From Archangium primigenium (GTDB lineage Bacteria; Myxococcota; Myxococcia; Myxococcales; Myxococcaceae), in assembly GCF_016904885.1 (NCBI RefSeq), contig NZ_JADWYI010000001.1, forward strand, positions 9,171,224-9,235,223: a DNA stretch of 64,000 bases. Reading direction: 5' to 3'. Each line of letters starts with the position of its first letter. Positions within the stretch are counted from its first letter, which is position 1. The translations under genes and the position numbers were made by a program. Positions 13,571 through 30,746 of the stretch are shown here, one piece after another. The notes under the pieces were generated by a model. It saw only the letters and a program-made list of their open reading frames with translations, did no database searches and was not told where the DNA came from.

Positions 13571-13608
13571 TTGACCCGAAAAAAAAGGCTTCCTTCTCTT
13601 GCTGTTAT
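13571..13608 (+). promoter_or_regulatory. TTGACCCGAA element upstream of chitin-module gene
   Basis: TTGACCCGAA at 13571-13580, followed by an A-tract. The same 10-mer occurs upstream of two chitinases (17736-17745 and, on the minus strand, 22340-22349), with a 9/10 match before murQ (30737-30746). It could be a -35 region or an activator site. In the 13.57 and 22.34 kb copies a TCTT lies 16 bases after the element. The rest of the 216-base gap 13446-13661 shows nothing else I can name. Confidence 0.5.
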
Positions 13609-13661
13609 CTCGCTGGGGCCGATGTCGGTCCTCGGCCCACTCAGCATCGAGGAAGACTGGA

Positions 13662-15815
13662 ATGTTCTCCCCCTACTGGAAGGCTCCCGCCCAGGCCGTG
13701 TTCGCGGCCTCCGCGACGCTGTTCTTGAGCCTCGCGCCGAGCCTGGCGCTCGCCGCCAACCGCGGCGCCTGGGCCGCCAACGTCTCCTACGTCACCGGCG
13801 ACTTCGTCACCTACAGCGGCAAGGGCTATGACTGCCGCCAGACGCACACCTCGCTCACCGGCTGGGAGCCGCCCAACGTCCCCGCCCTCTGGCTGGAGGG
13901 CACCACGACTCCGCCCCAGGACACCCAGGCCCCCTCCACGCCGAGCGGCCTCACCTCCCCCAGCAAGACGGCCAACAGCGTCTCCCTCTCCTGGAACGCC
14001 TCCAGCGACAACGTGGCCGTCACCGGCTACGAGGTCTTCAACGGCTCCACCCTCGCCGCCAGCGTCTCCGGCACCTCGGCCACCGTCTCCGGCCTCAACG
14101 CCAACACCACCTATACCTTCACCGTGAAGGCCCGCGACGCCGCCGGCAACCGCTCCGCCGCCAGTTCCGCCTTCAGCACCACCACCTCCCCCACCTCCCC
14201 CGCCGACACCCAGGCGCCCTCCACGCCGAGTGGCCTGTCCTCGCCGAGCAAGACGGCCAGCAGCGTGTCGCTCGCCTGGAACGCCTCCAGCGACAACGTG
14301 GCCGTCACCGGCTACCTCGTCTTCCGCAACGGCACCCAGGTGGGCACGCCGACGGGCACCTCCTATACGGACAGCGGCCTCGCGGCCTCGACGGCGTACA
14401 ACTACACCGTCAAGGCGCGGGACGCGGCGGGCAACCAGTCCACGGCGAGCGCCACGCTGAGCGTCACCACGCAGGCGGGCACCACCAACCCGGACACGTC
14501 CTGGCGCCCGGGCTACGTGGCGCTGGGCACCGTGTACGAGCCCTTCACGGGCACGGACAAGTACTTCTCCAAGGTGAACCCGCAGTTCCCCTCGGGCAAG
14601 CGGCTCAACTACGGCTACCTGTATCTCAATGGCGGCTCGCAGATGTCCGAGTGGCATGACCGGACCGTGCGCCTGGCCACGAAGAGCAAGGAGCAGGGCA
14701 TGACGCCCATCTTCGTGGTGTATGGCATTGGCGGCAACACGGACGACCACGGGGTGGTGTGGAGCAACCTGCAGAGCGCCGGGTTCCTCAACGGCTACTT
14801 CAAGGGCATCAAGGACGTGGGCCAGACGGCCACGGGCATCATCGGCACGGGCCGCATCGGCTACGTCATCGAGCCCGACACGCTGGGCTACCTCATGCAG
14901 CACTACGCCTCGCAGTATGGCAATGACCCGACCCGGATCCCGGCGGCCACCTATGCCGCGTACGACTCGGGCGTGCTGCAGCGGGGCGTGGATCCCGCGT
15001 TCCCGGACACCCTGACGGGGCTCGTGCAGGCCATCAACTACACGCTGCGCAAGTACACCCCCAAGGCGTTCCTCGGCTGGCAGCTCAACCTGTGGGCGGC
15101 GTCGGGCGCGCCGAGCAACGGCATCATGCACGCCACGGAAGTGTGGGGCCTGGAGACGGGCAAGACGCGCATCCAGGAGAACGCGCGCGCCAACGCGGGC
15201 TTCGCCCTGAAGGCCGGCGTGAAGTATGGCAATGCCGAGTTCATCTCCATCGACAAGTACGGCCTGGACGGCGGCATCGCCGCGGGCGGCAACCCGGCGG
15301 ATCCGGCGAGCTCGCCGTGGTTCTGGAACGCGGACCTCTGGAACAACTACCTGCTCTTCTGCAAGACGTTGAAGGAGACGCTCAGCCTGCCCGTGGTGCT
15401 CTGGCAGATTCCCGTGGGCCACATCAACGGCACCCAGCAGTCGAGCCCCACGACCTACAACGCCTCGGGCACCTTCCCGGACCTCGACCACACCACGCAG
15501 CGCTACGAGGACTCCGCCTCCACGTTCTTCTTCGGCGACCGCATCACGCTGTCGGGCAACCGCCTGTCCTACTTCTCCAAGAACGTGTGGAACGACTCCA
15601 AGGTGTCGGTGAGCGGCAACGTCGTCACCTGGGGCTCGCACATCCAGGACGCGGCCAACGCGGGCATCGTCGCCATCCTCATGGGCGCGGGCGTGGGCAT
15701 CAGCACCCGTGGCATTCCCCAGCCGGGCGCCTACCCGGAGGATCAGCCCACGGACGCCTACTACTGGATCACCCGGGTGCAGCAGTACTACGCGAGCCCG
15801 GTGCTCGCGCCCTGA
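13662..15815 (+). CDS. Secreted chitin-binding protein with unassigned, GH6-like catalytic domain
   Basis: 717 aa; a GAGGAA ribosome site precedes the ATG. Order: signal peptide ending LSLAPSLALA (about 1-31); a CBM5/12 chitin-binding module with GAWAANVSYVTGDFVTYSGK and W-containing NVPALW (31-78); two fibronectin type III domains (about 87-178 and 182-272); then a ~430-residue domain. That domain is not GH18, GH19 or GH20. It has a barrel-like feel and the motif YVIEPDTLGY with Glu404 and Asp406, close to the EPDSL signature of GH6 cellulases, plus FISIDKYGLDGG and VVLWQIPVGH. It lacks the other GH6 signature. A new or distant glycoside hydrolase acting on chitin or an associated polysaccharide is the best guess. 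It lies 59 bases upstream of a GH18 chitinase and is probably co-transcribed. Confidence 0.8.
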   Translation: MFSPYWKAPAQAVFAASATLFLSLAPSLALAANRGAWAANVSYVTGDFVTYSGKGYDCRQTHTSLTGWEPPNVPALWLEGTTTPPQDTQAPSTPSGLTSPSKTANSVSLSWNASSDNVAVTGYEVFNGSTLAASVSGTSATVSGLNANTTYTFTVKARDAAGNRSAASSAFSTTTSPTSPADTQAPSTPSGLSSPSKTASSVSLAWNASSDNVAVTGYLVFRNGTQVGTPTGTSYTDSGLAASTAYNYTVKARDAAGNQSTASATLSVTTQAGTTNPDTSWRPGYVALGTVYEPFTGTDKYFSKVNPQFPSGKRLNYGYLYLNGGSQMSEWHDRTVRLATKSKEQGMTPIFVVYGIGGNTDDHGVVWSNLQSAGFLNGYFKGIKDVGQTATGIIGTGRIGYVIEPDTLGYLMQHYASQYGNDPTRIPAATYAAYDSGVLQRGVDPAFPDTLTGLVQAINYTLRKYTPKAFLGWQLNLWAASGAPSNGIMHATEVWGLETGKTRIQENARANAGFALKAGVKYGNAEFISIDKYGLDGGIAAGGNPADPASSPWFWNADLWNNYLLFCKTLKETLSLPVVLWQIPVGHINGTQQSSPTTYNASGTFPDLDHTTQRYEDSASTFFFGDRITLSGNRLSYFSKNVWNDSKVSVSGNVVTWGSHIQDAANAGIVAILMGAGVGISTRGIPQPGAYPEDQPTDAYYWITRVQQYYASPVLAP
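13741..14218. repeat. CBM5/12-FnIII module repeat, copy 1
   Basis: Nearly identical to 15957-16434 (offset 2216). It covers the end of the signal peptide, the chitin-binding module and the first FnIII domain of two adjacent genes. Only scattered base changes are seen, many at third codon positions. Confidence 0.9.
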
Positions 15816-15874
15816 GTGGCCTTGTCATTCACCCCTTCCCCATTCCTCGACTCATTCCTGAAAGGGATTCCCTG

Positions 15875-17695
15875 ATGCACACCTCGACTCGTTCGGGCCG
15901 CGCGGCGCTCTCCGTGCTGGTGGCCTTCGTCGCCCTGCTGTGGAGCCTCGCGCCGGGCCTGGCGCTCGCCGCCAACCGTGGCGCCTGGGCCGCCAACGTC
16001 TCCTACGTCACCGGCGACTTCGTCACCTACAGCGGCAAGGGCTATGACTGCCGCCAGAACCACACCTCGCTCACCGGTTGGGAGCCGCCCAACGTCCCCG
16101 CGCTCTGGCTGGAGAACTCCACGACGCCGCCCCAGGACACCCAGGCGCCCTCCACGCCGGGTGGCCTGACCTCCCCCAGCAAGACGGCCAACAGCGTCTC
16201 CCTCTCCTGGAACGCCTCCAGCGACAACGTGGCCGTCACCGGCTACGAGGTCTTCAACGGCTCCACCCTCGCCGCCAGCGTCTCCGGCACCTCGGCCACC
16301 GTCTCCGGCCTCAACGCCAACACCACCTATACCTTCACCGTGAAGGCCCGCGACGCCGCCGGCAACCGCTCCGCCGCCAGCTCCGCCTTCAGCACCACCA
16401 CCTCTCCCACCGCCCCCGCCGACACCCAGGCGCCCACGGCGCCCTCCAGCCTGCGCTCCACGGGCGTGAGCGGCAACAGCGTGTCGCTCGCCTGGACGGG
16501 CTCCAGCGACAACGTGGCCGTCACGGGCTACGAGGTGTTCACCGGCTCCACGCTCGCCACCACCGTCACCACGACGTCCGCCACGGTGTCGGGCCTCAAC
16601 GCCAACACCACCTACACCTTCAGCGTGAAGGCGCGCGATGCCGCCGGCAACCGCTCCACCGCCAGCAACAGCGTCTCCGCCACCACGACGAGCACGCCCC
16701 CGAGCAGCTCGAAGAAGATCATCGTCGGCTACTGGCACAACTTCGACAACGGCTCGACCAACATCCGCCTGCGTGACATCTCCACGAAGTACGACGTCAT
16801 CCAGGTCGCGTTCGCCGAGCCCGTGGGCGGCGCCGATACGGGCAACATGGTCTTCACGCCGTACAACGCGACGCAGGCCGAGTTCAAGTCGGACGTCGCC
16901 TACCTCAAGAGCCTGGGCAAGAAGGTCCTCATCTCCATCGGTGGCGCCAACGGCACCATCCACCTGGACAACACCACCGGCAAGGCGAAGTTCCTCTCCA
17001 CCATGCAGTCCATCATCGACACCTATGGTTTCGATGGCCTGGACCTGGACCTCGAGGGCAGCTCGCTCGCGCTCAACGGCGGCGACACGGACTTCCGCAG
17101 CCCCACCACGCCGAAGATCGTCAACCTGATCGACGCCACGCGCCAGCTCATCAACCGCTACGGCTCGGGCTTCGTGCTCACCATGGCGCCCGAGACGGCC
17201 TACGTGCAGGGCGGCTACTCCGCGTACGGCGGCCCGTGGGGCGCCTACCTGCCCGTTATCTACGCGCTGCGCGACCGCCTCACCTACCTGCACGTGCAGC
17301 ACTACAACACCGGCACCGTCACCGGCCTGGATGGCAAGTCCTACGCCCAGGGCACGCCCGACTTCCACGTGGCCATGGCGGAGATGATGATCCGCGGCTT
17401 CCCCGTGGGCGGCAACACCAACCAGATGTTCCCCGGCCTGCGCGCGGACCAGATCGTCATCGGCCTGCCCTCCTCGCCCCAGGCGGCGGGTGGCGGCTAC
17501 ACGACGCCGGCCAACGTGCAGAAGGCGCTCGACTACCTCATCAAGGGCAAGTCCTTCGGCGGCTCCTACGTGCTGCGTCAGGCTTCCGGCTACTCGGACT
17601 TCAAGGGGCTCATGACCTGGTCCATCAACTGGGACAAGTTCACCAACTTCGAGTTCTCCAACAGCCACCGCGCCTACCTGGACACGTACAAGTAG
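15875..17695 (+). CDS. GH18 chitinase with CBM5/12 and two FnIII domains
   Basis: 606 aa, secreted. The start at 15875 (MHTSTRSGR) gives a signal peptide ending LAPGLALA. The CBM5/12 module (32-78) and first FnIII domain are almost the same as in the upstream gene; a second, different FnIII domain follows (about 182-277). The catalytic domain runs from KKIIVGYWHNFDNGS to the end and carries the GH18 signature D387-G-L-D390-L-D392-L-E394, with Glu394 as acid. The DLDLE variant and short barrel resemble ChiD/ChiA-type bacterial enzymes in which the Trp of DxDWE is absent. It would hydrolyse beta-1,4-GlcNAc links outside the cell. It sits 59 bases after the GH6-like gene and is probably in its transcript. 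Confidence 0.95.
   Translation: MHTSTRSGRAALSVLVAFVALLWSLAPGLALAANRGAWAANVSYVTGDFVTYSGKGYDCRQNHTSLTGWEPPNVPALWLENSTTPPQDTQAPSTPGGLTSPSKTANSVSLSWNASSDNVAVTGYEVFNGSTLAASVSGTSATVSGLNANTTYTFTVKARDAAGNRSAASSAFSTTTSPTAPADTQAPTAPSSLRSTGVSGNSVSLAWTGSSDNVAVTGYEVFTGSTLATTVTTTSATVSGLNANTTYTFSVKARDAAGNRSTASNSVSATTTSTPPSSSKKIIVGYWHNFDNGSTNIRLRDISTKYDVIQVAFAEPVGGADTGNMVFTPYNATQAEFKSDVAYLKSLGKKVLISIGGANGTIHLDNTTGKAKFLSTMQSIIDTYGFDGLDLDLEGSSLALNGGDTDFRSPTTPKIVNLIDATRQLINRYGSGFVLTMAPETAYVQGGYSAYGGPWGAYLPVIYALRDRLTYLHVQHYNTGTVTGLDGKSYAQGTPDFHVAMAEMMIRGFPVGGNTNQMFPGLRADQIVIGLPSSPQAAGGGYTTPANVQKALDYLIKGKSFGGSYVLRQASGYSDFKGLMTWSINWDKFTNFEFSNSHRAYLDTYK
15957..16434. repeat. CBM5/12-FnIII module repeat, copy 2
   Basis: Partner of 13741-14218. 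Sequence similarity ends at the border between the first and second FnIII domain, so the duplicated unit is the binding module plus one linker domain rather than a whole gene. Confidence 0.9.
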
Positions 17696-17727: not shown

Positions 17728-17780
17728 AAGACAGGTTGACCCGAAACGCCGCTCGCGGCGCTCTCTCTTCTGCCTGTCTT
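17728..17780 (+). terminator. Hairpin after GH18 chitinase
   Basis: Outer arms AAGACAGG (17728-17735) and CCTGTCTT (17773-17780) enclose a perfect inner stem CGCCGC-TC-GCGGCG (17747-17760). T-rich sequence follows (TTCCTCGTTTTC). It could end the two-gene chitinase transcript. The TTGACCCGAA element lies inside the hairpin, so termination and the next promoter overlap. Confidence 0.5.
17736..17745 (+). promoter_or_regulatory. TTGACCCGAA element upstream of GH18 lipoprotein chitinase
   Basis: Exact copy of the element at 13571, located 65 bases before the next chitinase start at 17811. A GGAGG ribosome site stands five bases before that start. Confidence 0.5.
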
Positions 17781-17810: not shown

Positions 17811-19661
17811 ATGCGTCGGTCGTCCAAGTTCCTCATTCCTAGTCTGATGGGCCTGCTCGTCGCCTGTGGCGCCGAGCAGGAGCTGCCCGCCTCGGCCCAC
17901 GTCGAGAGCCTGGAGCAGGGCGCCGCGACCGCCGCCGGGCTCACCGCGACGTTCGCCCAGGCGTCCAGTTGGGGCGGCGGCTTCAGCGCCACCGTCACCA
18001 TCAAGAACACCACGGCCAGTGTCATCAATGACTGGGCCATCAACTTCAAGTTCAACGGCAGCGCCGCGGTGAGTGGCACGCCGTGGGGCGCGGGTGGCTC
18101 GGCCACCAAGGGTTCGGACGGCTCGTGGACCCTCCTGCCCAACTCCTGGGGCGGTGGCACGGTGCCCGCCAACGGCAGCGTGACGGTGACCTTCGAGGGC
18201 ACGGGCACCTACGGTGGCGTGAGCACCTGCAACATCAACGGCTATGCGTGCACCGGCGGCACCCCGCCCTCCAGCGACAAGACGGCGCCCACGGTGAGCC
18301 TGTCGGCCAGCCCCACCAACCTCACCAGCGCGGGCACCGTGACGCTCACCGCGCCCGCCAGCGACAACGTGGGCGTGGCCCGGGTCGAGTTCTACAAGAA
18401 CGGCGCGCTCTTGAGCACCGACACCACCAGCCCCTACAACGCCACGGACAGCTTCTCGTCCACCACCCAGAACGGCACCTACAGCTATACGGCCAAGGCG
18501 TTCGACGCCGCGGGCAACTCCGCCACGTCCTCCGCCGCCAGCGTCACCGTCAAGCTCACCACCAGCGAGCCCCCGCCCACCACGGGCGGCCGCATGTACA
18601 TCGGCTACGCGAGCAGCTGGAACACGAGCATCAACGACCTGACGACGGCCAACATCCCCAGCTACTACACGCACCTGAACCTGTCCTTCGTGCGCCCGGA
18701 CATGGCCTACACCCGCGGCTCGCTCGCGTTCGACCAGGCGGTGGCGGGCTTCGAGTTCTTCGAGGGTGCCGCGACCAACAGCGGCCAGAAGAAGTTCACC
18801 GCGGCCCAGTCCCAGACGCTCATCAACAACATCAAGGCGCTGCGCGCGCGCGGCACCCAGGTGTGGATCTCCGTGGGCGGCTGGAGCTACAGCCAGGGCG
18901 ACCAGTGGTCGCGCTTCAACGCGGGCCACGTGGTGGACCTGGCGCAGGACCTGGGCGCGGACGGCGTGGACATCGACTGGGAGTCGAGCGGCAGCAGCTG
19001 CAACAAGCTCGAGGAGTCCCAGTTCAGCTGCAGCAAGGACGGGGAGATCGCCAGCATCATCACCACCCTGGACAGCACCATCCGCTCGCGGGGCCTCAAC
19101 CTGGGCATCTCCATCGCGGGCTGGTCCACGGGCGCCTACTACGTGAAGGGCACGCCGTTCGAGGAGGGCAAGGTGCAGTGGGGCTCGCCCTTCGGTGGCA
19201 CCATGTACAGCGTGGTGAAGAACCACGGCTCCAAGCTGCGCCACATCAACCTCATGTCCTACGACGGCGGCGACTACTACGATCCGCGCGAGGGCTATGA
19301 GTCCTACCGGGCCATCTACTCGGGCCCCATCGCCATGGGCCTGGAGATCGCGCCCGAGGGCGCGGGCGGCGCCACGCTGCGGCTCAACGCCGACTCGGGC
19401 ACCGTCTACGACGCGGAGATGCTCACCGGGCAGAACAACATGGCGACGAAGTATTACAACGTCGAGACGCTCGCCACGTACATGAAGAACAAGGGCAAGC
19501 CCACCGACGGCATGATGGTCTGGCAGGTGTGGAAGGAGCGCGTGCACGCCGCGCCGCCGTCCGGGGCCGCGTCCGTGAATGCCACGGGCCAGAAGGTCTG
19601 CCAGATGCTCGGCATCACCAGCAACTGCAACCAGAGCATCCCCAGCCTGCCCAAGTACTAG
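17811..19661 (+). CDS. Lipid-anchored GH18 chitinase with CBM2-like and Ig-like domains
   Basis: 616 aa. The N-terminus is a lipoprotein signal (MGLLVAC, Cys at about 20), so the enzyme is expected on the outer membrane rather than free. Domain order: a CBM2-like beta-sandwich (GLTATFAQASSWGGGFSATV through CNINGYACTGG, with conserved Trp and a Cys pair, about 43-150), a bacterial Ig-like domain (VSLSASPTNLTSAG to ASVTVKL, about 160-250), then GH18. The catalytic motif is D384-G-V-D387-I-D389-W-E391, the classic DxxDxDWE, with GVWIS-type barrel strands (VWISVGGWSYSQ). An insert with Cys residues (SSCNKLEESQFSC) follows the acid strand. It has its own TTGACCCGAA element and a strong ribosome site. 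Confidence 0.95.
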   Translation: MRRSSKFLIPSLMGLLVACGAEQELPASAHVESLEQGAATAAGLTATFAQASSWGGGFSATVTIKNTTASVINDWAINFKFNGSAAVSGTPWGAGGSATKGSDGSWTLLPNSWGGGTVPANGSVTVTFEGTGTYGGVSTCNINGYACTGGTPPSSDKTAPTVSLSASPTNLTSAGTVTLTAPASDNVGVARVEFYKNGALLSTDTTSPYNATDSFSSTTQNGTYSYTAKAFDAAGNSATSSAASVTVKLTTSEPPPTTGGRMYIGYASSWNTSINDLTTANIPSYYTHLNLSFVRPDMAYTRGSLAFDQAVAGFEFFEGAATNSGQKKFTAAQSQTLINNIKALRARGTQVWISVGGWSYSQGDQWSRFNAGHVVDLAQDLGADGVDIDWESSGSSCNKLEESQFSCSKDGEIASIITTLDSTIRSRGLNLGISIAGWSTGAYYVKGTPFEEGKVQWGSPFGGTMYSVVKNHGSKLRHINLMSYDGGDYYDPREGYESYRAIYSGPIAMGLEIAPEGAGGATLRLNADSGTVYDAEMLTGQNNMATKYYNVETLATYMKNKGKPTDGMMVWQVWKERVHAAPPSGAASVNATGQKVCQMLGITSNCNQSIPSLPKY

Positions 19662-20405: not shown

Positions 20406-22172
<1,767 letters not shown>

Positions 22173-22428: not shown

Positions 22429-22485
22429 AAAAGAAAACGGCGCCCGCCCCACGCCAGGCAAAGCCTGACGCGGAGCGTGCGCCGT
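22429..22485 (-). terminator. Rho-independent terminator of the hexosaminidase gene
   Basis: On the minus strand, ACGGCGC (from 22485) pairs with GCGCCGT (to 22437), with a further inner stem CAGGC-TTT-GCCTG, and is followed by TTTTCTTTT. It is 15 bases after the hexosaminidase stop. Confidence 0.85.
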
Positions 22486-22499
22486 CGGGAAAACCGGCC

Positions 22500-25265
22500 T
22501 CAGTTCAGCGTGGCGACACGGCTGGTGCGGCCATCGGTCGCGAGCGTGCGCAGCTGCACGCGGCCCGAGACATCCACCGGCGCCGTGTAGCGCTTCCAGG
22601 TCGCGCCGTTGTCCGTGGAGTACTCGATGACCATGCCCGGAAAGAGCACGTTCGCCGTGAGCTTGCCGCCGCTCACTTCCGCGCCCGGCAGGGGAATGCG
22701 GTAGTTCACGCCCACGGAATCCGGCAGCTCGCCGCGCGTGTCTACCGGCCGGTAGGTATCCAACCGCGGCAGGATGGATTGACCCAGGGCATTGGTGAAC
22801 TGCGCCCAGAGCGCGGGCATCTCCGCCTCGGCGGGCAGCTCGGGATTCCAGGCGCGCTCGGCCACGCCCAACATCTTCGGGAAGGCCAGGTACTCCATCA
22901 CCTCGGGCGTCTTCACGTTCTCGCTCCAGAGCAGACCGTGCATGCCGAGGATGTTCTTCTTGCCCTCGGCGGACAGGCGGACCTTGTCCTTCAGGTCGCT
23001 CGGAGAGATGGGATTGCCCATCCGGTTGTGGGTGGCGTTGGCGTAGATGTTGAAGGGCCGGTACTCGAACGTCTTCTTCACGTCCGTGAAGTTGGCCCAG
23101 TAGTAGCCGGGCTCGTCCGGATCCTTGTTGTAGGCCAGGTCCATGTAGAGGTTGGTCGAGTGGGAGAGGATGACCGAGTAGCCCTGGTTGGCGAACTTGT
23201 AGGCATCATCCTCGCGGCCCCAACCCCACACGTTGCTCCAGGGCATGGGAATGAAGCCCTCGAGGTCCAGACCGTTGTGAATCACATCATCCCAGCCGGT
23301 CATCTTCGCGCCGGTGGTGGTGATGATCTGGCTCCAGCGCTTGAAGAAGTGGTTGGCCAGCGCGATGTCGCCCAGATCCTTGGTCTCGGCGTTGGCCTTG
23401 CACAGGGGAGAGCCCTGCCACCAGACGTTGGACTGGACCGAGGGCAGCTCGTCGCCGCCGCCATGGATGGTCGTGAGCCTGGCGCCCGGGACCTTCGCGT
23501 ACCGCGCCGCGATCTCCTGGACGACCTTGGTCAGGAAGGCATACGAGGTCTCCAGGCAGGGATTGACGAAGTTGTCCGTGTAGCCCTGGACGCTCGTGTG
23601 CTTGGAGGTGTCGTTGGGATCGAAGAGCCGGTACTGGGTGGCCTTCTCCGGGTCCGTGTCCTTGTACTTGCGGTAGCGGTACTCCATGGACAGCACGGCG
23701 GCGCGCGCGTGGCCCGGCATGTCGATCTCCGGGATCACCTCGATGTGCCGCTCGGTGGCGTAGCGGAGGATCTCCTCGAAGTCCTGGGTCGTGTAGTAGC
23801 CGCTGCCCTTGCCCACGAAGTTGAGCATCTCCTGCTCGAACCCCTGGTAGGCCGGACGCACCGTCTCCGTGGCGCCGCGCCTGGCGGGCTTGAGCTCGAT
23901 GCGATCGCCCGTCTCCAGGTCGTTCGAGGAGCCCATGGCCGCGTGCATCATCTGGGTCTCGTCCGGATCGAACCCGCGGCGCGAGCCGTAGTCCGTCAGC
24001 TCCGGGATGCCCGGGATCTCCAGGCGCCACCCCTCGTCATCCGTGAGGTGGAAGTGGAACTTGTTGATCTTGTAGTAGGCGAGCACGTCCAGCAGCTTCT
24101 TGACCGTCTCCTTGGACTGGAAGTGACGGCCCACGTCCAGGTGCATGCCGCGGTAGGTGAAGCCCGGCGCGTCGGAGATGAGCACCGCCGGAATGGACAG
24201 CTCCGTGCGGCGGCCGCTCGGCTTCACCGCGGCGGCGTAGGCCTCGGTGGGGATGAGCTGGCGGAGCGTCTGCAGGCCGTGGAACACGCCGGCCGCGTCC
24301 GTGCCGGTGATGGTGATGCGGCCGTCCTTGGCGTCGAGCTGGTAGCCCTCGGCGTCCGCCTTGCCGTCCCCGTCGATGTCCAGGTCCGCCTGGATGCGCA
24401 GCTGGATGGCCTCGCTCCCCGTGGAGACGCGCGCGCCGATGCTGCCGGCCATCACGTCGCCGAGCGCCGAGACCAGGTAGCGGGCCTCGTTCTCGAGCGC
24501 CTCGGAGTGGCCCACCTGCAGGCCTTCGCGCAGCGTCACCTGACCCTCACGCGCCGTGACGGCGCGGGGCGACGGCAACAGCCGACGCTTGAGCTCCAGG
24601 TCGGCCAGGGCCGGGTTCTCCTGGAAGCGCAGGGCGGGGGTCTGCACCGGCAGCGTGTCGTCCTTGAAGCGCGAGGTCTGCTTGGGGTCCGCGGCGTCGA
24701 GCTTCGCCGTCGACGGCACGGCGTACGCGCGGTCGCTCTTGAACTGGCCGCCGGAGAACACGATGTGGAAGCCCGCGGGCCCGTCCGACTTGAGGATGGC
24801 CCAGTCGGTGGCCAGCACGTCCAGCGCCCGCCGCTCGCCCACCGCGATGGGCTTGAAGTCCGGCAGGGGCTCGAGCACGAAGTAGTCGCCGCTGCCCGCC
24901 CGGTCCGCCCGGGACACCTTCACGCCCTGTTTGGCGAGCTCCTGGTAGATGCGCAGGTCCTTGCTGCCCTCGCCCTCGTTGAGCACGCGGCGCACGAAGC
25001 TGAAGTAGAGCTTCCAGCCCTGGTTGCCCAGGGCCTCGGGGCCCTTGTTCTCCAGGGTGAAGGTGGAGCGGAAGAAGCCCGGCGCGCTCGGGAAGTTCTC
25101 CACGACCTGCCACTCCACGGAGAGCGCGGAGGAGGGCGTGGGGACCGGCTCGGGCTGGGGCTCACCGGGCTTGTTGGGCTCCGGGTTGGGAGTCGGCGAG
25201 TCTCCGCCAGTACATCCCGAGGCCAGCACCGCCATGATGGGAAGAGACGTCAGAAACCGCTTCAT
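22500..25265 (-). CDS. GH20 beta-N-acetylhexosaminidase (chitobiase), lipoprotein
   Basis: 921 aa. The start at 25265 gives a lipoprotein signal ending LASGC, then a Pro/Glu-rich spacer. Domains: CHB_HEX-type carbohydrate-binding domain (ALSVEWQVVENFPSAPG, about 48-220), the GH20b alpha/beta domain (RRLLPSPRAVTAREG to TDAAGVFHGLQTLRQLI, about 228-350), the GH20 barrel from FTYRGMHLDVGRHFQ, and a C-terminal Ig-like domain ending in YSTDNGATWKRY. The catalytic pair is Asp605-Glu606 in HGGGDELP, using substrate-assisted cleavage. It would split chitobiose and longer oligomers into GlcNAc for the PTS encoded next door. It is the last gene after murQ-nagF-nagE on the same strand, 124 bases downstream of nagE. 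Confidence 0.96.
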   Translation of the reverse strand: MKRFLTSLPIMAVLASGCTGGDSPTPNPEPNKPGEPQPEPVPTPSSALSVEWQVVENFPSAPGFFRSTFTLENKGPEALGNQGWKLYFSFVRRVLNEGEGSKDLRIYQELAKQGVKVSRADRAGSGDYFVLEPLPDFKPIAVGERRALDVLATDWAILKSDGPAGFHIVFSGGQFKSDRAYAVPSTAKLDAADPKQTSRFKDDTLPVQTPALRFQENPALADLELKRRLLPSPRAVTAREGQVTLREGLQVGHSEALENEARYLVSALGDVMAGSIGARVSTGSEAIQLRIQADLDIDGDGKADAEGYQLDAKDGRITITGTDAAGVFHGLQTLRQLIPTEAYAAAVKPSGRRTELSIPAVLISDAPGFTYRGMHLDVGRHFQSKETVKKLLDVLAYYKINKFHFHLTDDEGWRLEIPGIPELTDYGSRRGFDPDETQMMHAAMGSSNDLETGDRIELKPARRGATETVRPAYQGFEQEMLNFVGKGSGYYTTQDFEEILRYATERHIEVIPEIDMPGHARAAVLSMEYRYRKYKDTDPEKATQYRLFDPNDTSKHTSVQGYTDNFVNPCLETSYAFLTKVVQEIAARYAKVPGARLTTIHGGGDELPSVQSNVWWQGSPLCKANAETKDLGDIALANHFFKRWSQIITTTGAKMTGWDDVIHNGLDLEGFIPMPWSNVWGWGREDDAYKFANQGYSVILSHSTNLYMDLAYNKDPDEPGYYWANFTDVKKTFEYRPFNIYANATHNRMGNPISPSDLKDKVRLSAEGKKNILGMHGLLWSENVKTPEVMEYLAFPKMLGVAERAWNPELPAEAEMPALWAQFTNALGQSILPRLDTYRPVDTRGELPDSVGVNYRIPLPGAEVSGGKLTANVLFPGMVIEYSTDNGATWKRYTAPVDVSGRVQLRTLATDGRTSRVATLN

Positions 25266-25331
25266 GTTGCCTCCGGCGAACGGATTCACTTCGGTTGTGT
25301 GTTCTTGAGACAGAGTTCCCCCAACCCCCGA

Positions 25332-25357
25332 GGGAGTCTGGCGTTCACCAGACTCCC
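25332..25357. terminator. Hairpin between nagE and the hexosaminidase gene
   Basis: GGGAGTCTGG (25332-25341) and CCAGACTCCC (25348-25357) form a perfect 10-bp stem with a six-base loop. No U-tract follows on the minus strand, so it may only attenuate read-through or stabilise the upstream RNA end. Confidence 0.45.
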
Positions 25358-25389
25358 GGGGCCCTCCCCCACCCTGCGTGTTCGAGGCG

Positions 25390-27123
25390 TCAGCGCAGCA
25401 GCGCGCGCAGCTCGTCGGCCACCCGGTCCGCCGTGGGCCCGATGATGACCTGCACGGAGCCGGCGGCCGGCTTGACCACGCCGCGCGTGCCGAGCCCTCG
25501 CAGCGCCGCGTCATCCACGCGCTGATCGTCCACCACCACCAGCCGCAGGCGCGTGGAGCACAGGCCGATGTCCCGGATGTTCGAGGCACCGCCCAGCGCG
25601 ACGATCATGCCCTGCGCCAGGGTGCGCTCGGGGTTGACGGCCGCGGGAGCGACGGCCGGACCCGCGCGCAGCGCCTCGCGCACCTCGGAGGCCACCTGGT
25701 CGGCCTGCGGGCCGATGATGATCTGCACGCTGCCGGGCGCGGGCCGGATGATGCCGCGCGAGCCGAGCACCGAGGCGGCCTTCTCGTCGACGCGGGTGTT
25801 GTCCGCCACGTTCAGGCGCAGGCGGGTGGTGCAGGCGTCCACGACCTGGATGTTCGCCGCGCCTCCGAGCGCCTGGATCCAGGCCGCGCCCCGGGACAGG
25901 GCGGGCGCGGGCAGCGAGGCGCCATCGGCCGGAGCGGCCGAGGCGAGGTCGTCCTCCTCACGGCCCGGGGTCTTCAGGTTGAAGTGGGAGATGCAGAGGG
26001 TGAACAGGCCGTAATAGAGGCCGAAGTACACCGCGCCCACGGGCAGCAGCAGGACGGGGTTGGTGGCCAGCTTGTAGTTGAGCACGTAGTCGAACATGCC
26101 CGCCGAGAAGCCGAAGCCCAGCTTCACGTTGAGCACGTCCATGGCCACCATGGACACCCCCGTGAGCACCGCGTGCAGCAGGTAGAGCGGCGGCGCGAGG
26201 AACATGAACGCGAACTCGATGGGCTCGGTCACGCCGGTGAGGAAGGACGTGAGCGCCATGGACAAGAGCAGGCCGCCCACCTTGGCGCGGTTGCGCGGCA
26301 GGGCCGCCCGGTACATGGCCAGACACGCCGCCGGCAGGCCGAACATCATCACCGGGAAGAAGCCCGCCATCATCGCGCCCGCGGCGGGGTCACCCTTGAA
26401 GAAGCGGTTCAGGTCACCCGTGGCGCCGTTGTAGTCCCCGAGGATGAACCACGCGAGGTTGTTGAGGATGTGGTGCAGGCCGGTGACGAGCAAGAGCCGG
26501 TTGAACACGCCGTAGAGGAACAGACCCGCCCGGCCCGCGCTGAACACCGCGCGGCTGGCGCTGTCCAGGCCCGACTCGATGAGGGGCCAGCCAAAGCCGA
26601 ACACCAGCGCCACGCCCAGGCACGCCAGACCCGTGATGATGGGAACGAACCGGCGGCCACCGAAGAAGGCCAGGTACTCCGGCAGCTTGATGTCCTTGAA
26701 GCGGTTGTACAGCACCCCCGCGAGCAGGCCGGAGATGATGCCCGTGGGCACGCTGATCTTCGAGGCGAGGCGCGCCTTGTACCCGGACACCGCCAGGTCC
26801 TTGGCCGCGCCCACCAGCCCGTCGAGGACCGCGGGCGGCACCTGCACCAGGGCATCCGTGCCCTTGATGACGATGAAGTAGCCCACCGCGCCCGCCAGAC
26901 CCGCGGCGCCGTGGTTCTCCTTGGCGAAGCCCACCGCCACACCCACGGCGAACAACAGGCCGAGGTTGGCGAAGATGGCGTCTCCCGCCGCCGCGATGAA
27001 CGAGATGCCGAGCAGATCTGGTTGACCCAGACGCAGCAGCAGGCCCGCGATCGGCAGGACGGCGATGGGCAACATCAAGGCGCGCCCGAGCTGTTGTACT
27101 CCCGCGAACTTGTTGCTCACCAT
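25390..27123 (-). CDS. nagE: GlcNAc-specific PTS permease EIICB with two EIIB domains
   Basis: 577 aa. Residues 1 to about 370 are the glucose/GlcNAc-type EIIC membrane domain with about ten hydrophobic segments and the substrate-site region LVTGLHHILNNLAWF and LTGVTEPIEFAFMF. Two EIIB domains follow in tandem: the first with DACTTRLRL, the second with GLCSTRLRL, each with the phosphorylatable Cys and the GSVQ-IIIGP ending. Most NagE proteins have a single EIIB, so the duplication is unusual. EIIA is supplied in trans by the fused protein of the upstream gene, 29 bases away. The complex imports GlcNAc as GlcNAc-6-phosphate. The start at 27123 was chosen because upstream in-frame sequence is not conserved-looking. 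Confidence 0.93.
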   Translation of the reverse strand: MVSNKFAGVQQLGRALMLPIAVLPIAGLLLRLGQPDLLGISFIAAAGDAIFANLGLLFAVGVAVGFAKENHGAAGLAGAVGYFIVIKGTDALVQVPPAVLDGLVGAAKDLAVSGYKARLASKISVPTGIISGLLAGVLYNRFKDIKLPEYLAFFGGRRFVPIITGLACLGVALVFGFGWPLIESGLDSASRAVFSAGRAGLFLYGVFNRLLLVTGLHHILNNLAWFILGDYNGATGDLNRFFKGDPAAGAMMAGFFPVMMFGLPAACLAMYRAALPRNRAKVGGLLLSMALTSFLTGVTEPIEFAFMFLAPPLYLLHAVLTGVSMVAMDVLNVKLGFGFSAGMFDYVLNYKLATNPVLLLPVGAVYFGLYYGLFTLCISHFNLKTPGREEDDLASAAPADGASLPAPALSRGAAWIQALGGAANIQVVDACTTRLRLNVADNTRVDEKAASVLGSRGIIRPAPGSVQIIIGPQADQVASEVREALRAGPAVAPAAVNPERTLAQGMIVALGGASNIRDIGLCSTRLRLVVVDDQRVDDAALRGLGTRGVVKPAAGSVQVIIGPTADRVADELRALLR

Positions 27124-27152
27124 CTCGTGTTCTCCATGGGTAATGCCTTTCC

Positions 27153-29732
27153 TCAGAGACCCGGCCACGTGCTCGTCACGAGCGCGCGCACTTCGTCACC
27201 ATTCTCGAGTTCCAACGCCTGACGGGCGGTCTTCTCGCACTGGCTCATGGAGAGCGTGCGGATGAAGGCCTTGAGCCCGGGGATGACCGCCGGCGACACC
27301 GACAGCTCGTCGACGCCCAGGCCGATGAGCAGCGGCGCCGCCCGCAGGTCCGACGCGATGCCACCACACACCGCCACCGGCCGCGCGTGCTTGCGCGCCC
27401 CCTCCACCGTGCTCGCCACCAGGCGCAAGAGACCCGGGTGCAGACCGTCCAGTTGCGCCGCCACGTGCGGGTTGCCGCGATCCATGGCGAGCCCGTACTG
27501 GGTGAGATCATTGGTGCCAATGGACAGGAAGTCCGCCTCGCGCGCGATCCGGTCCGACAGCATGGCGGCCACCGGCACCTCGATCATCGCCCCCAGGGCC
27601 ACCGGCGTGGACACGCCCAGCGCCCGGCGCTCCTCCTCCAGCATGATGCGCACCGCGCGCATCTCGTGGGCGGACGTCACCATGGGCACGAGCACGCGGC
27701 AGACGCCCTCGGGCTTCACGCGCAGGATGGCGCGCAGCTGGGTGCGCAGCATGTCCGGGTGCCGCAGGGAGACGCGCACCCCGCGCAGGCCGAGCACCGG
27801 GTTCTCCTCGCGCGGCAGCGGCAGGTAGGCCAGGGGCTTGTCCCCGCCCACGTCCAGGGTGCGGATGACGAGCGGACGGCCGCCCAGCGCCTGGGCGATG
27901 TGCTGGTACTGCGCCGTCTGCTCCTCCTCGGTCGGCTCGGTGGAGCGCTCGAGGAAGAGGAACTCGCTGCGCAGCAGGCCGCAGCCCTCCGCGCCCTGCG
28001 ACGCCGCGGACGCCGCGTCCCCGGGACGGCCCAGGTTGGCGAAGATCTCCACGTGCCGGCCGTCCAGCGTGTGGCAGCCCTCGTGGGCCCGGGCCAGGTG
28101 GGCCTCGCGCCGGGTGGCCCGCTCCGCCAGCGAGCGCAGCGTGGCCGACTGGAGCTCGGCGCTCGGATGGACGTGGACCTCGCCCCGCTCGCCATCCACG
28201 ATCATCGCCGCGCCGTTGGGCACCCGCAGGGCCGCGTCGCCCGCAGCCACCACCGCCGGAATGCCCAGGCCCGCGGCCAGGATGGCCACGTGGGACGTGG
28301 GGCCGCCGTGCGCCGTGCACAGCGCCGCCAGCCGACCCGGGGGCACCGCCGCCAGGTCCGACGGCATCAGCTCGTCCGCCACGAGGATGGCGTTGTCGGG
28401 CAGGTTCTCGGGCACCCGCGAGCCGCTCTGCCCCGTGAGCAGGGCGACGACGCGCCGACCGATGTCCCGCAGGTCCCCACCGCGCTCGGCCAGCAGGGCG
28501 TTCTCCAGCCGCTGCAGCATGCCCACGTGCAGCTCGATGGCGCTGCGCCACGCCCACTCGGCGCTGTGGCCCGAGGAGATGGACTGCAGGGCGGCGTCAT
28601 TGAGGTCCGGGTCGTCCAACAGCACCAGGTGCGCCCGGAAGATCTCCGTGCGCGCCACGCCCGACTCGCCCTCGATCATCACCTCGATCTCCTGGCGCAC
28701 GCTCGTCAGGGCATGGGTGAGCCGGCGCTGCTCCTCGGCCTGTCCCTGGCCCCGCTGGGTCAGCTCCAGTTGCGTCTCGAGCACCCGGACGGCGATGCCC
28801 ACGGCGATGCCCGGGGCCGCCGGCGTGCCCTTGAACAGGGCGGGCGCGCCCGCCGCGTAGGGCGTGAGGGCCACGGGCGACGCGGCCCTGGGCGCGGGCG
28901 CGGTGGCCGCCGGCGCCTCGACGATGGGCTGGATGGGATCGCCCAGGCCGCTGGACACCAGGTCCACCAGCGCCTGCAGCCGCTGGCCCGCCTCGGCGCC
29001 CTGCACGGTGAGGGTCAGCGTGTCGCCATGCTTGGCCCCCAGGCCCATGAGCGCCACGACACTCTTGCCATTGGCGACGCGCCCGCCATGGGCCACGCTC
29101 ACCGACCCCGGGTGCATCCGCGCATGGCGGCTGAACACGGCGGCGGGACGGGCGTGCAGTCCATTGGGAATCAAGAGCCGCACGGCGCGCTCGGCCGTGG
29201 CACCCGCCGCGGCCTCCTCGGGCGCGCGCTCCCCGCCCTCGATCTCCAGCAGCGGCTCGCCCAGGGACACCGCGCGGTCCTGGCGCCGGCTCGCGATGCT
29301 GTAGCCCTCGCCGTTGACCACCACCATCACCGTCAACAGGCTGCGCGCCCGGCGCGCCAGCAAGTCCATGTCGAAGGAGATGAGCGGCTCGCCCGCCTTC
29401 ACCCGCTGGCCCTCGCGCACGCGCACGGTGAAGCCCTCGCCGCGCAGGTTCACGGTGTCCAGGCCGATGTGCAGGAGGATCTCCGCGCCCGTGGCGGCGC
29501 GCAGCGTGCAGGCATGCCCCGAGGCATGGATCGACACCACCACGCCGTCACACGGCGCCTGGAGCTCGGACGAGGTGGGGTCGACGGCGATCCCATCCCC
29601 CACCATCTTCTGGGAAAAGGCGGGATCGGGCACTTCCTCGAGCCGCGTGGCCCAGCCCGCGAGAGGTGCGATGAGTTTGAGCATGGACATGGTTCCCGGC
29701 TCCGTGGAAGAGACGAGACTCAACGTGGACAT
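27153..29732 (-). CDS. nagF: Fused PTS phosphotransferase EIIA-HPr-EI
   Basis: 859 aa with three PTS modules in one chain. EIIA of the glucose type (IAPLAGWATRLEEVPDPAFS to about 165) has the active His in EILLHIGLDTVNL. HPr (about 175-265) has the active His in IPNGLHARPAAVF. Enzyme I (about 300-859) has the active His in GGPTSHVAILAAGLGIP and the PEP-binding barrel marks GLLRSEFLFLER and FLSIGTNDLTQY. The fusion carries phosphate from PEP to EIIB without any other PTS protein, as in Pseudomonas NagF. The chosen start (29732) overlaps murQ by 13 bases; Met at 29690 is an alternative with a GGAG site. Second gene of the murQ-nagF-nagE series. Confidence 0.95.
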   Translation of the reverse strand: MSTLSLVSSTEPGTMSMLKLIAPLAGWATRLEEVPDPAFSQKMVGDGIAVDPTSSELQAPCDGVVVSIHASGHACTLRAATGAEILLHIGLDTVNLRGEGFTVRVREGQRVKAGEPLISFDMDLLARRARSLLTVMVVVNGEGYSIASRRQDRAVSLGEPLLEIEGGERAPEEAAAGATAERAVRLLIPNGLHARPAAVFSRHARMHPGSVSVAHGGRVANGKSVVALMGLGAKHGDTLTLTVQGAEAGQRLQALVDLVSSGLGDPIQPIVEAPAATAPAPRAASPVALTPYAAGAPALFKGTPAAPGIAVGIAVRVLETQLELTQRGQGQAEEQRRLTHALTSVRQEIEVMIEGESGVARTEIFRAHLVLLDDPDLNDAALQSISSGHSAEWAWRSAIELHVGMLQRLENALLAERGGDLRDIGRRVVALLTGQSGSRVPENLPDNAILVADELMPSDLAAVPPGRLAALCTAHGGPTSHVAILAAGLGIPAVVAAGDAALRVPNGAAMIVDGERGEVHVHPSAELQSATLRSLAERATRREAHLARAHEGCHTLDGRHVEIFANLGRPGDAASAASQGAEGCGLLRSEFLFLERSTEPTEEEQTAQYQHIAQALGGRPLVIRTLDVGGDKPLAYLPLPREENPVLGLRGVRVSLRHPDMLRTQLRAILRVKPEGVCRVLVPMVTSAHEMRAVRIMLEEERRALGVSTPVALGAMIEVPVAAMLSDRIAREADFLSIGTNDLTQYGLAMDRGNPHVAAQLDGLHPGLLRLVASTVEGARKHARPVAVCGGIASDLRAAPLLIGLGVDELSVSPAVIPGLKAFIRTLSMSQCEKTARQALELENGDEVRALVTSTWPGL

Positions 29733-30637
29733 GGACCGGCCTTCCCCTGGGAAGCGCGCTCCTGGAGCGCGGTGCGCAGATTGCCCCCCGAACGGGCGAG
29801 GAGGGCGTCGGCCTCGGCGGCGGAGCATCCGCTCAGCCCGAGGACGGCGCGTGGAATGTCCCCATGGGCGGCGAGGGCCTCGGCGGCGGCCTGCTCCCCG
29901 ACCTGGGCGATCTGGCGGATGATGTGGATGCAGCGCTGGCGCAGCTTGGTGTTGCCCGGCCGCACATGGCACATGAGGTTGTCGAAGACGAAGCCCAGGC
30001 GCGTCATGAGCGCCGTGGAGAAGAGGTTGAGCGCCACCTTCTGGGCCGTGCCCGCGCCCAGCCGCGTGGAGCCCGCGATCACCTCGGCCCCGGTGCGCAG
30101 CAGCACCCGGTGCTCCGCGGCGCGCATCAGCGGCGAGTCCTCCACGCTGGCCAGCGCGATCGTCAGCGCGCCCGCGTGCCGCCCCTCCGCCAGCACGCCC
30201 GTCGTGAAGGCGCTATGGCCGCTGGCGGACACCCCCACCACCACGTCCTGGGACCCGGGCCCGAACTCCGCCAGGCGCGCGCGCCCCGCCGCCGCGTCGT
30301 CCTCGGCGGGCCCGTTGATGCCCCCGGCCAGGTCCCGCCCCTCCGCCAGCAGGATGGCGAGCCGGGAGGAGGGCCAACCAAAGGTGCCCGCCAGCTCCAG
30401 CGCGTCCAGCTCGGCCAGCGCCCCCGAGGACCCCGCCCCCGTGTAGATGAGCCGCCCGGTGCCGCGCGCCAGCCGCTCGTGCGCCGCGCCCACCGCGCGC
30501 TCCAGCTCCGGCAAAACGGGCAGGCAGGCCGCCACCGCCCGGGACTGGCTCGCCCACAACGTCTCGAGGACCTCCCCGGTGCTCCAGGTGTCCAACCCCT
30601 TCAAGCGCTGGGGCGACCCTTCCGTTTCCCGCGACAT
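29720..30637 (-). CDS. murQ: N-acetylmuramic acid 6-phosphate etherase
   Basis: 305 aa. It has the SIS-domain sugar-phosphate fold of MurQ: GRLIYTGAGSSGALAELDA, then DVVVGVSASGHSAFTTGVL, and the C-terminal LMCHVRPGNTKLRQRCIHII, a conserved MurQ segment. It cleaves the lactyl ether of MurNAc-6-P to give GlcNAc-6-P and lactate, joining cell-wall sugar recovery to the GlcNAc pathway. It is the first gene of the minus-strand operon, overlapping nagF. In a predator that lyses other bacteria this would let peptidoglycan sugars enter the same route as chitin sugars. Upstream are the NagR-like operators and a near copy of the TTGACCCGA element. Confidence 0.93.
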   Translation of the reverse strand: MSRETEGSPQRLKGLDTWSTGEVLETLWASQSRAVAACLPVLPELERAVGAAHERLARGTGRLIYTGAGSSGALAELDALELAGTFGWPSSRLAILLAEGRDLAGGINGPAEDDAAAGRARLAEFGPGSQDVVVGVSASGHSAFTTGVLAEGRHAGALTIALASVEDSPLMRAAEHRVLLRTGAEVIAGSTRLGAGTAQKVALNLFSTALMTRLGFVFDNLMCHVRPGNTKLRQRCIHIIRQIAQVGEQAAAEALAAHGDIPRAVLGLSGCSAAEADALLARSGGNLRTALQERASQGKAGPCPR

Positions 30638-30657
30638 GTGGAGTCCCCTCGGCAGCG

Positions 30658-30692
30658 ACTGGTATTAGATTGGACTGGTGCACCATACCAGC
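30658..30692. promoter_or_regulatory. Candidate NagR operator, murQ side
   Basis: Nested symmetry: outer arms CTGGTAT (30659-30665) and ATACCAG (30685-30691), with a perfect inner palindrome TGGTGCACCA (30676-30685). TGGT/ACCA half-sites are typical of HutC-type GntR regulators of GlcNAc genes such as DasR. It lies 20 bases upstream of murQ. Confidence 0.6.
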
Positions 30693-30736
30693 ACCTTTCT
30701 CGATTTCAACGAGAATTTCACTTTGTGCGGTGGCGC

Positions 30737-30746
30737 ATCGGGTCAA
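30737..30746 (-). promoter_or_regulatory. TTGACCCGAT element upstream of murQ operon
   Basis: On the minus strand, TTGACCCGAT runs from 30746 to 30737, one base different from the element upstream of the chitinases. It stands about 100 bases before the murQ start in a comparatively A/T-rich stretch. Confidence 0.4.

What the first reader, a model, noticed from the sequence alone, without database searches (positions are those of the whole stretch)
13571..30746. A shared TTGACCCGA(A/T) element marks the chitin genes
The 10-mer TTGACCCGAA occurs upstream of two plus-strand and one minus-strand chitin genes (13571, 17736, 22349), and TTGACCCGAT upstream of murQ (30746). All are in gene-start regions and in the direction of transcription. 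I noticed no other copy in the window. An ECF-type sigma factor with no adjacent anti-sigma lies among them. It may define a chitin regulon.
Basis: partly seen in the sequence, partly recalled or inferred. Interest (0 to 1): 0.65.

Follow-up and report, generated by a model that had tools for sequence, protein, structure and literature searches.

The report
Chitin-regulon promoter of ECF sigma factor
The short DNA element in front of three chitin-digestion units is one half of a two-part switch that is very probably read by the sigma factor encoded beside it, and the same switch sits before most of this soil bacterium's chitinase genes and, in relatives, before other enzymes of the kind that digest fungal walls.

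Summary
The four ten-mers are real, exact and unexpected (4 found, 0.11 expected). Comparison with relatives turns three (13571, 17736, 22349) into a bipartite promoter, TGACCCGAA-N15-CTC[TC] (ATCT at 22349). The murQ copy (30746) lacks the second half and is absent from all six murQ orthologs aligned, so it does not belong. In this genome the element precedes, exactly or with one mismatch, 7 of 8 GH18 genes (one as second gene of a unit), a chitin-type AA10 LPMO gene and a paralogous ECF gene. Over nine genomes N15 dominates a spacer sweep (64 of 150 matches tallied). Targets in relatives also include GH19, GH64, GH30 and alpha-1,3-glucanase genes. The ECF family has the element before its own gene in 34 of 51 loci. 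The sigma factor at 19705-20316 belongs to a supported clade; in 19 of 19 clade loci compared it lies just downstream of GH20, or of the GH18 gene that here follows GH20. Best reading: an ECF without neighbouring anti-sigma directs an extracellular chitin/fungal-wall regulon. Its input may be the GntR-linked GlcNAc operon; that step is inferred, and a strong terminator-like hairpin stands against it. Nothing was tested in cells.

The parts
13571..13599 (+). ECF-type promoter TTGACCCGAA-N15-CTCT before the CBM5/12-Fn3 gene 13662 and GH18 gene 15875
   Evidence: same element before the orthologs in G001, G002, G003, G017
17736..17764 (+). ECF-type promoter TTGACCCGAA-N15-CTCT before GH18 17811
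   Evidence: same element in G001, G002, G003, CTGACCCGAA-N15-CTCT in G010; none within one mismatch before the G017 ortholog
22321..22349 (-). ECF-type promoter TTGACCCGAA-N15-ATCT before GH18 20406 and ECF1
   Evidence: orthologs in G001-G003 have TTGACCCGGA-N15-CTCT; the G010 ortholog has TTGACGCGAA without CTC
30737..30746 (-). TTGACCCGAT before murQ: rejected as a member (no CTC at N15; absent in 6 of 6 orthologs)
19705..20316 (-). ECF1, 203-aa ECF sigma factor (sigma2 and sigma4 regions only)
13662..15815 (+). CBM5/12-Fn3 protein with signal-like N-terminus (by eye)
15875..17695 (+). CBM5/12-Fn3-GH18 protein, second gene of the 13571 unit
17811..19661 (+). CBM2-Big7-GH18 protein, lipoprotein-like N-terminus (by eye)
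20406..22175 (-). CBM5/12-Big7-GH18 protein, directly upstream of ECF1
22436..22486 (-). terminator-like hairpin with T-rich tail after GH20 (81-nt fold -49.6 kcal/mol, z -4.56)
22500..25589 (-). GH20 beta-hexosaminidase (open frame; homology begins further in)
25390..27168 (-). GlcNAc-type PTS EIICB (nagE-like)
27153..29972 (-). EIIA-HPr-EI fusion (open frame; homology begins further in)
29720..30637 (-). murQ-type MurNAc-6-P etherase
30675..30691 (.). GntR-type operator-like CTGGTAT-N5-ACCAG; CTGGTAT half kept in 6 of 6 orthologs, ACCAG half varied
30682..30709 (-). sigma-70-like TTGAAA-16-TATGGT before murQ (one such match in the region, 0.9 expected by chance, but TTGAAA and GGTAT kept in the orthologs)
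30855..31673 (+). GntR/UTRA regulator, divergent from murQ
31670..32731 (+). NagB-II-like deaminase (328 bits, below the curated cut-off of 430)

Best explanation
TGACCCGAA-N15-CTC[TC] is the -35/-10 promoter of an ECF sigma factor family of Myxococcota. The orphan member at 19705-20316 (ECF1) uses it to switch on an extracellular chitin-degrading regulon: GH18 chitinases and a chitin-type LPMO here, plus other wall-active hydrolases in relatives. By site 22349 it also drives the chitinase gene just upstream of itself and so probably itself (positive feedback). ECF1 has no anti-sigma gene beside it; its level is probably set by transcription, starting from the GntR-linked GlcNAc operon (murQ, EIIA-HPr-EI, nagE-like, GH20), at whose 3' side it lies. 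Shown by computation: the element, its fixed spacing, its targets, its recurrence before the ECF family's own genes, and ECF1's conserved place. Inferred: that ECF1 rather than only its paralog reads the sites, and that GntR is the upstream switch.
For: Spacer N15 is 64 of 150 tallied matches in a sweep N5-N25 over 9 genomes, next best 11. TGACCCGRA-N15-MTCY gives 9, 17, 16, 19, 18 and 7 hits in G000, G001, G002, G003, G010 and G017, reversed pattern 0 in each. Of 53 strict sites in G000, G001, G002, G010 and G017, 47 by hand tally start a gene: 27 GH18/GH19/AA10/CBM5-12 or orthologs of gene 13662, 7 other carbohydrate-active or lectin-like, 6 DUF7910, 6 paralogous ECF or its neighbour lipoprotein, 1 amidohydrolase. 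GH18 genes with the element: 7 of 8 in the window genome (one by operon, one with a mismatch), 8 of 10 in G002, 5 of 8 in G010. 34 of 51 ECF-family loci carry TGACCCGNN-N15-CTCY before the ECF gene; no other spacing exceeds 7. Sites per genome: ECF1 present, mean 6.35 (n=20); paralog only 1.22 (n=37); neither at E<=1e-40, 0.26 (n=39). G010 and G041 have ECF1 as their only hit at E<=1e-40 and hold 16 and 14 sites.
Against: No transcript or binding data. ECF1 and paralog sites look alike, so they cannot be assigned to one sigma factor. G016 has ECF1 but no standard site (AACCCGAA variants at two genes of its chitin cluster); G071, with ECF1 and two paralogs, has 1; five genomes of g39 (Myxococcus by the tree) with ECF1 have only 2-4; G019 and G049 have 1. 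The G017 ortholog of 17811 and the G010 ortholog of 20406 lack the element. The ECF-less sister G039 has just 1 GH18 gene, so the contrast within genus g8 (14, 13, 16 against 0, 0, 0) is joint loss rather than independent proof. The hairpin between GH20 and chitinase-ECF1 may uncouple ECF1 from the GlcNAc operon here. 6 of 53 strict sites do not start a gene. Where ECF1 follows GH20 directly (e.g. L222) no element was seen before ECF1.
Confidence: 0.85

Rival explanations
1. The promoters are read mainly by the paralogous ECF (ECF2: own promoter, overlapping TPR-protein gene as candidate anti-sigma), and ECF1 is redundant or minor.
For: ECF2-type genes carry the element before themselves in many Myxococcota; in a Myxococcus xanthus record a variant, TAACCCGAA-N15-CTCT, precedes the GH18 gene that lies two genes upstream of ECF2; the window genome has both.
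Against: G010 and G041 have only ECF1 yet 16 and 14 sites; paralog-only genomes average 1.22 sites.
Confidence: 0.2
2. The element is an operator for a transcription factor next to ordinary sigma-70 promoters.
For: TTGACC resembles a sigma-70 -35 hexamer, and CGGGTTTGACCCG at 13571 is near-palindromic.
Against: Strict two-block spacing, one orientation towards the gene and the repeated place before ECF genes fit a promoter; a sigma-70 consensus scan of 13000-32000 finds one match, at murQ, which is also the number expected by chance.
Confidence: 0.08
3. Shared promoters are inherited by duplication of chitinase genes and mean nothing more.
For: Several targets are GH18 paralogs.
Against: Unrelated target families (AA10, GH19, GH64, GH30, ECF) carry it with unalike spacer sequences.
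Confidence: 0.04
4. The ten-mer cluster is chance.
For: 13 copies occur genome-wide; 8 of the 9 outside the window lack the second half.
Against: 0.11 expected in the window; the element recurs before orthologs in other species.
Confidence: 0.02

Closest known systems
Transcriptionally controlled ECF sigma factors without anti-sigma (HrpL/ECF32, SigE and SigQ/ECF39; review PMC8999054, passages seen)
   Same: Two-domain ECF, no adjacent anti-sigma; its place suggests control of its level by a separate regulator
   Different: Predicted regulon is chitin and fungal-wall hydrolysis; the suspected regulator is a GntR/UTRA protein of a GlcNAc operon; promoter TGACCCGAA-N15-CTC[TC]
SigI/RsgI biomass-sensing sigma factors of Clostridium thermocellum (PMC6056542, abstract seen; PMC10766802, passages seen)
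   Same: Alternative sigma factors that switch on secreted polysaccharide hydrolases
   Different: Different sigma family (recalled); RsgI is an anti-sigma with a carbohydrate-binding part (recalled), while ECF1 has no such partner beside it
NagR/DasR control of chitinase genes (Bacillus thuringiensis NagR, PMC6141813, abstract seen; Streptomyces DasR, PMC4398421, search listing)
   Same: GntR/HutC-type regulator at a GlcNAc PTS locus tied to chitin use
   Different: Here the only perfect CTGGTAT-N5-ACCAG in the window is at murQ, not before the chitinase genes; a sigma factor would pass the signal on
Chitinophaga pinensis locus for chitin and beta-glucans of fungal walls (PMC10449523, search listing)
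   Same: Joint deployment of chitin- and glucan-degrading enzymes
   Different: One polysaccharide utilization locus in Bacteroidota, against a dispersed sigma-factor regulon here

Membership tests
ECF (group 4) sigma factor | sigma2 and sigma4 regions without other sigma domains | tested here: met
   Pfam Sigma70_r2 37-93 and Sigma70_r4_2 135-187 in 203 aa; TIGR02937 over its cut-off
ECF sigma factor with adjacent membrane anti-sigma | anti-sigma gene next to the ECF gene | tested here: not met
   Immediate neighbours of ECF1 in the window are GH18 genes on both sides; in 19 of 19 other ECF1-clade loci the gene upstream is GH20 or GH18. The TPR-protein partner of ECF2 is not found at E<=1e-6 in G041, G016 and G019, only weakly in G010. 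Small unannotated frames were not scanned for anti-sigma domains
Transcriptionally regulated ECF without anti-sigma | sigma gene transcribed under a separate regulator | tested here: inconclusive
   Colinear with the operon that has the GntR-type operator, but a strong hairpin lies between
Transcriptionally regulated ECF without anti-sigma | loss of the regulator changes sigma expression | not testable with these tools
   needs mutants and RNA data
Autoregulated ECF, wider family | sigma gene lies behind a promoter of its own type | tested here: met
   34 of 51 loci have TGACCCGNN-N15-CTCY before the ECF gene
Autoregulated ECF, ECF1 itself | sigma gene lies behind a promoter of its own type | tested here: inconclusive
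   In the window and G001-G003 the site lies before GH18, the gene upstream of ECF1; where ECF1 follows GH20 directly no site was seen before it (L222)
Numbered ECF phylogenetic group | match to a group profile of the ECF classification | not tested
   no group profiles available; the NCBIfam equivalogs among the 25 best shown are all below cut-off
NagR/DasR regulon | GntR operator before the chitinase genes | tested here: not met
   One perfect CTGGTAT-N5-ACCAG place in the window, at murQ; matches with up to 3 mismatches are fewer than chance (11 against 25). Chitinase genes elsewhere in the genome were not scanned

The most novel reading that the evidence does not exclude
Myxobacteria related to Cystobacter, Archangium and Hyalangium command their fungal-wall arsenal (chitinases, LPMO, and beta- and alpha-glucan hydrolases) through one anti-sigma-less ECF sigma factor that rides at the end of a GntR-controlled GlcNAc operon, so that uptake of wall sugar feeds forward into attack enzymes with positive feedback.
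Probability: 0.5. Interest if true: 0.75.

Novelty: new member of a known kind. Interest (0 to 1): 0.62.

Why it matters
No regulator of myxobacterial chitinases of this sort turned up in the papers searched (open-access library only, listings mostly). A defined promoter and a named sigma gene make the regulon directly testable, point to unknown wall-active proteins (for example the DUF7910 proteins), and offer a promoter/sigma pair for enzyme production or biocontrol work.

Tried and rejected
murQ as a regulon member: rejected. Ten-mer as the full signal: rejected, because 8 of the 9 copies outside the window lack the second half. Sigma-70 reading of the element: not supported. Chance: rejected for three copies. 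The genus g8 contrast as clean proof: weakened by joint loss of chitinases. G016 as a refutation: two genes of its chitin cluster have AACCCGAA variants (one at N15, one at N14), but AACCCGAA-N14/15-CTCY is not in excess genome-wide there (10 against 8 control); it is in G071 (18 against 3) and G010 (8 against 1), not in G000, G039 or G040 (3/4, 4/5, 7/6), and only slightly in G002 and G069 (5/3, 7/5).

Technical dead ends and dropped rows. A first tree (61 rows) was wrong because some loci were translated on the wrong strand; it was rebuilt with 51 rows, leaving out 10 (L185, L187, L189, L191, L228, L235, L253, L259, L020, L272). One search used 51 of the 75 loci (the closer ones, L222-L271 and L290); some are near relatives of each other. 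One search profiled 67 of 83 sites; 16 loci with no gene start or inside frames were dropped, so its base frequencies describe and do not test. In G003 only 7 of the sites outside the cluster were fetched, so G003 is not in the tally of 53. In one search the G016 list was incomplete (3 of 7 matches, the listing being cut), and one -35 block can count at more than one spacing. Site counts were typed; ECF1/paralog labels rest on the tree for most genomes, on identity or on having two hits for G049 and G091, and G069 was put with paralog-only unproved. marks one TGA inside the G071 ECF1 match; the translation shows no internal stop. Of the four further matches, two (C1:8210061, 8210889) seem to lie inside one coding frame and two (4051419, 9292924) were not examined. 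Signal peptides and membrane helices were judged by eye.
Full report
OBSERVATION. Dinucleotide shuffles give a mean of 0.11 copies, largest 1; with one mismatch allowed the excess is weak (8 found, mean 4.01; 4 of 100 shuffles reach 8). The genome (9.49 Mb, 3 contigs) has 13 exact copies, 4 of them in this 17 kb; the reversed control pattern has 5. The ten-mer is however not the whole signal: of the 9 copies outside the window, only the one at C1:7992625 lies before a chitinase gene (GH18) with the second element described below.

THE ELEMENT IS BIPARTITE. The chitin cluster is syntenic in three same-genus genomes (G001-G003) and recognisable in G010, G016, G017 and G019. Reading these regions shows a second block at fixed distance: TTGACCCGAA-N15-CTCT before the orthologs of 13662 (G001-G003, G017) and of 17811 (G001-G003; CTGACCCGAA in G010), and TTGACCCGGA-N15-CTCT before the orthologs of 20406 (G001-G003). 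The G017 ortholog of 17811 and the G010 ortholog of 20406 lack it. In the window the three sites read TTGACCCGAA-N15-CTCT twice and TTGACCCGAA-N15-ATCT. A sweep of TGACCCGAA-N5..25-CTCY over nine genomes gave 150 matches that I could tally, 64 at N15, 11 at the next best spacing (the last genome's list was cut). TGACCCGRA-N15-MTCY found 9, 17, 16, 19, 18, 7, 4, 2 and 0 sites in G000, G001, G002, G003, G010, G017, G019, G016 and G018; the reversed pattern found 0 in the first seven, 5 in G016 and 1 in G018.

TARGETS. In the window genome RACCCGAA-N15-MTCY has 14 matches (reversed control 5). Ten lie before genes: the three in the window; a GH18-CBM5/12 protein (L009); an AA10 LPMO with GbpA_2 domain (L112); a DUF7910 protein (L111); a protein with a GH18 hit and, by eye, ricin-lectin-like repeats (L196); a protein with a GH18 hit and, by eye, CBM5/12 and Fn3 parts (L204); a paralogous ECF gene; and its neighbour, a DUF7305 protein (L077). 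Of the 8 GH18 places in this genome, 6 carry an exact site (one as second gene of the 13571 unit), one a site with one mismatch (L308), one none (L309). In G002 it is 8 of 10 and in G010 5 of 8. Over G000, G001, G002, G010 and G017 there are 53 strict sites. By hand tally 47 start a gene: 27 are GH18, GH19, AA10, CBM5/12 or orthologs of the window's 13662 gene; 7 are other carbohydrate-active or lectin-like (GH64 twice, alpha-1,3-glucanase, GH30, PL14, CBM6, ricin/thaumatin); 6 DUF7910; 6 the paralogous ECF or its neighbour; 1 amidohydrolase. The remaining 6 do not start a gene. Nearly all non-ECF products look secreted by eye. Chitinases together with GH64, GH30 and alpha-1,3-glucanase suggest fungal cell wall as substrate; that is inference from family names. 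Predicted starts lie 0-105 nt after the second block in the 67 sites profiled (first possible start codon), and 145 nt for 22349 if the ATG at 22175 is the true start.

WHICH SIGMA FACTOR. The gene at 19705-20316 encodes a 203-aa two-domain ECF sigma factor. Its relatives fall into a supported clade (ECF1; 20 of 51 rows, 100/98) and several other lineages (ECF2-type). Of 51 loci encoding the wider family, 34 have TGACCCGNN-N15-CTCY upstream of the ECF gene itself; other spacings reach at most 7 loci. Among 116 TGACCCG elsewhere in those loci, 12 have this spacing and at most 6 any other, some of the 12 being other sites of the regulon. The 34 include Myxococcus, Corallococcus, Pyxidicoccus, Hyalangium, a Sandaracinus record and unnamed Myxococcota. 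This ties the promoter to the ECF family independently of chitin. Among 96 genomes of the same family rank, counts of TGACCCGAA-N15-CTCY are: ECF1 present, mean 6.35 (n=20, range 0-16); only paralog, 1.22 (n=37); neither at E<=1e-40, 0.26 (n=39). Genomes are related, so the Mann-Whitney p of 7e-10 (ECF1 against neither) is nominal. G010 and G041, whose only hit is ECF1, have 16 and 14 sites. Three sister genomes without the family have 0, but the one examined (G039) also has only one GH18 gene, so the regulon and its reader vanish together.

RESULTS AGAINST. G016 has ECF1 and no standard site; two genes of its chitin cluster have AACCCGAA before CTCT, at N15 and at N14, without genome-wide excess (10 against 8). 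G071 has ECF1 and two paralogs but one standard site; AACCCGAA forms are in excess there (18 against 3). Five genomes of g39 (Myxococcus by the tree) with ECF1 have only 2-4 sites, G019 and G049 have 1. These suggest drift of the -35 block and variable regulon size, or that my definition is too narrow.

MURQ. The copy at 30746 is followed by no CTC at N15 and is absent from the aligned upstream regions of six orthologs. What is conserved there is TTGAAA, CTGGTAT with a varied ACCAG partner, and a further ATACCAGT, next to a divergent GntR/UTRA regulator. The sigma-70 scan calls TTGAAA-16-TATGGT there; one such match is also what chance gives, so its conservation is the better argument. The copy is best taken as coincidence.

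HOW IT IS PROBABLY CONTROLLED. murQ, EIIA-HPr-EI, GlcNAc PTS, GH20, GH18 and ECF1 are colinear on the minus strand. In 19 of 19 other ECF1-clade loci compared, ECF1 lies within about 240 nt downstream of GH20, or of the GH18 gene that in the window follows GH20, on the same strand. In Hyalangium versicolor (L222) the gap to GH20 is under 30 nt. ECF1 has no anti-sigma gene beside it, whereas ECF2 genes overlap a gene for a TPR protein with one membrane-helix-like stretch, a candidate anti-sigma. I therefore infer two-tier control: GlcNAc-type signals relieve the GntR regulator, the operon brings up ECF1, and ECF1 turns on the secreted enzymes and, through 22349, itself. The weak step is the strong hairpin with T-rich tail between GH20 and the chitinase in the window (-49.6 kcal/mol, z -4.56); G016 also has a hairpin between GH20 and ECF1 (z -2.04). 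Either may stop read-through. I put this upstream step at about 0.45-0.5 and the promoter/regulon claim at about 0.85.

KNOWN OR NEW. ECF sigma factors that lack an anti-sigma and are controlled by their own transcription are a described class (PMC8999054, passages), and sigma-factor control of polysaccharide hydrolases is known in clostridia and Bacteroides (PMC10766802, passages; PMC6056542, abstract). NagR control of a chitinase gene is known in Bacillus thuringiensis (PMC6141813, abstract). I found no paper on an ECF sigma factor for chitinases in myxobacteria, within an open-access library only. The numbered ECF group was not determined. Nearest solved structures by sequence are sigma-E type ECFs, best E 2.6e-13. 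I file it as a new member of a known kind: a new ECF regulon with its own promoter and an uncommon placement of the sigma gene.

ORGANISM. The genus itself was not determined; Cystobacter- or Archangium-like is my guess.

Noticed in passing
25390-27168: The GlcNAc PTS protein carries EIIC followed by two EIIB stretches, the second matching beta-glucoside and sucrose EIIB models.
   Followed up: no
27153-29972: EIIA, HPr and EI are fused in one protein within the GlcNAc operon.
   Followed up: no
L077:6824-7648 and L230:8597-9469: A TPR protein with one membrane-helix-like stretch (by eye) overlaps the end of ECF2-type genes: a candidate anti-sigma factor of unrecognised type.
   Followed up: partly
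L230:4749-8600: In a Myxococcus xanthus record a GH18 gene with TAACCCGAA-N15-CTCT before it, an unknown gene and ECF2 follow each other on one strand.
   Followed up: partly
L226: A record titled Comamonas sp. KCTC 72670 groups inside Myxococcus in the ECF tree; probably mislabelled or mixed.
   Followed up: no
L111, L117, L134, L140, L151, L157: DUF7910 proteins recur behind this promoter, some fused to GH18 or to a lytic-transglycolase-like DPBB domain; perhaps wall-binding.
   Followed up: partly
L118:484-3225 and L153:1504-4245: A Cache-HAMP-PAS-GAF histidine kinase lies behind a TTGACCCGGA-N15-CTCT site in G002 and G001 (Pfam run on L118 only): possible link to sensing.
   Followed up: no
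G019:C36:80174-81449: Three TTGACCCGAA copies exactly 633 bp apart, apparently a long tandem repeat.
   Followed up: no
37060-37132: A tRNA gene on the minus strand, the only Rfam match at gathering threshold in the window.
   Followed up: no
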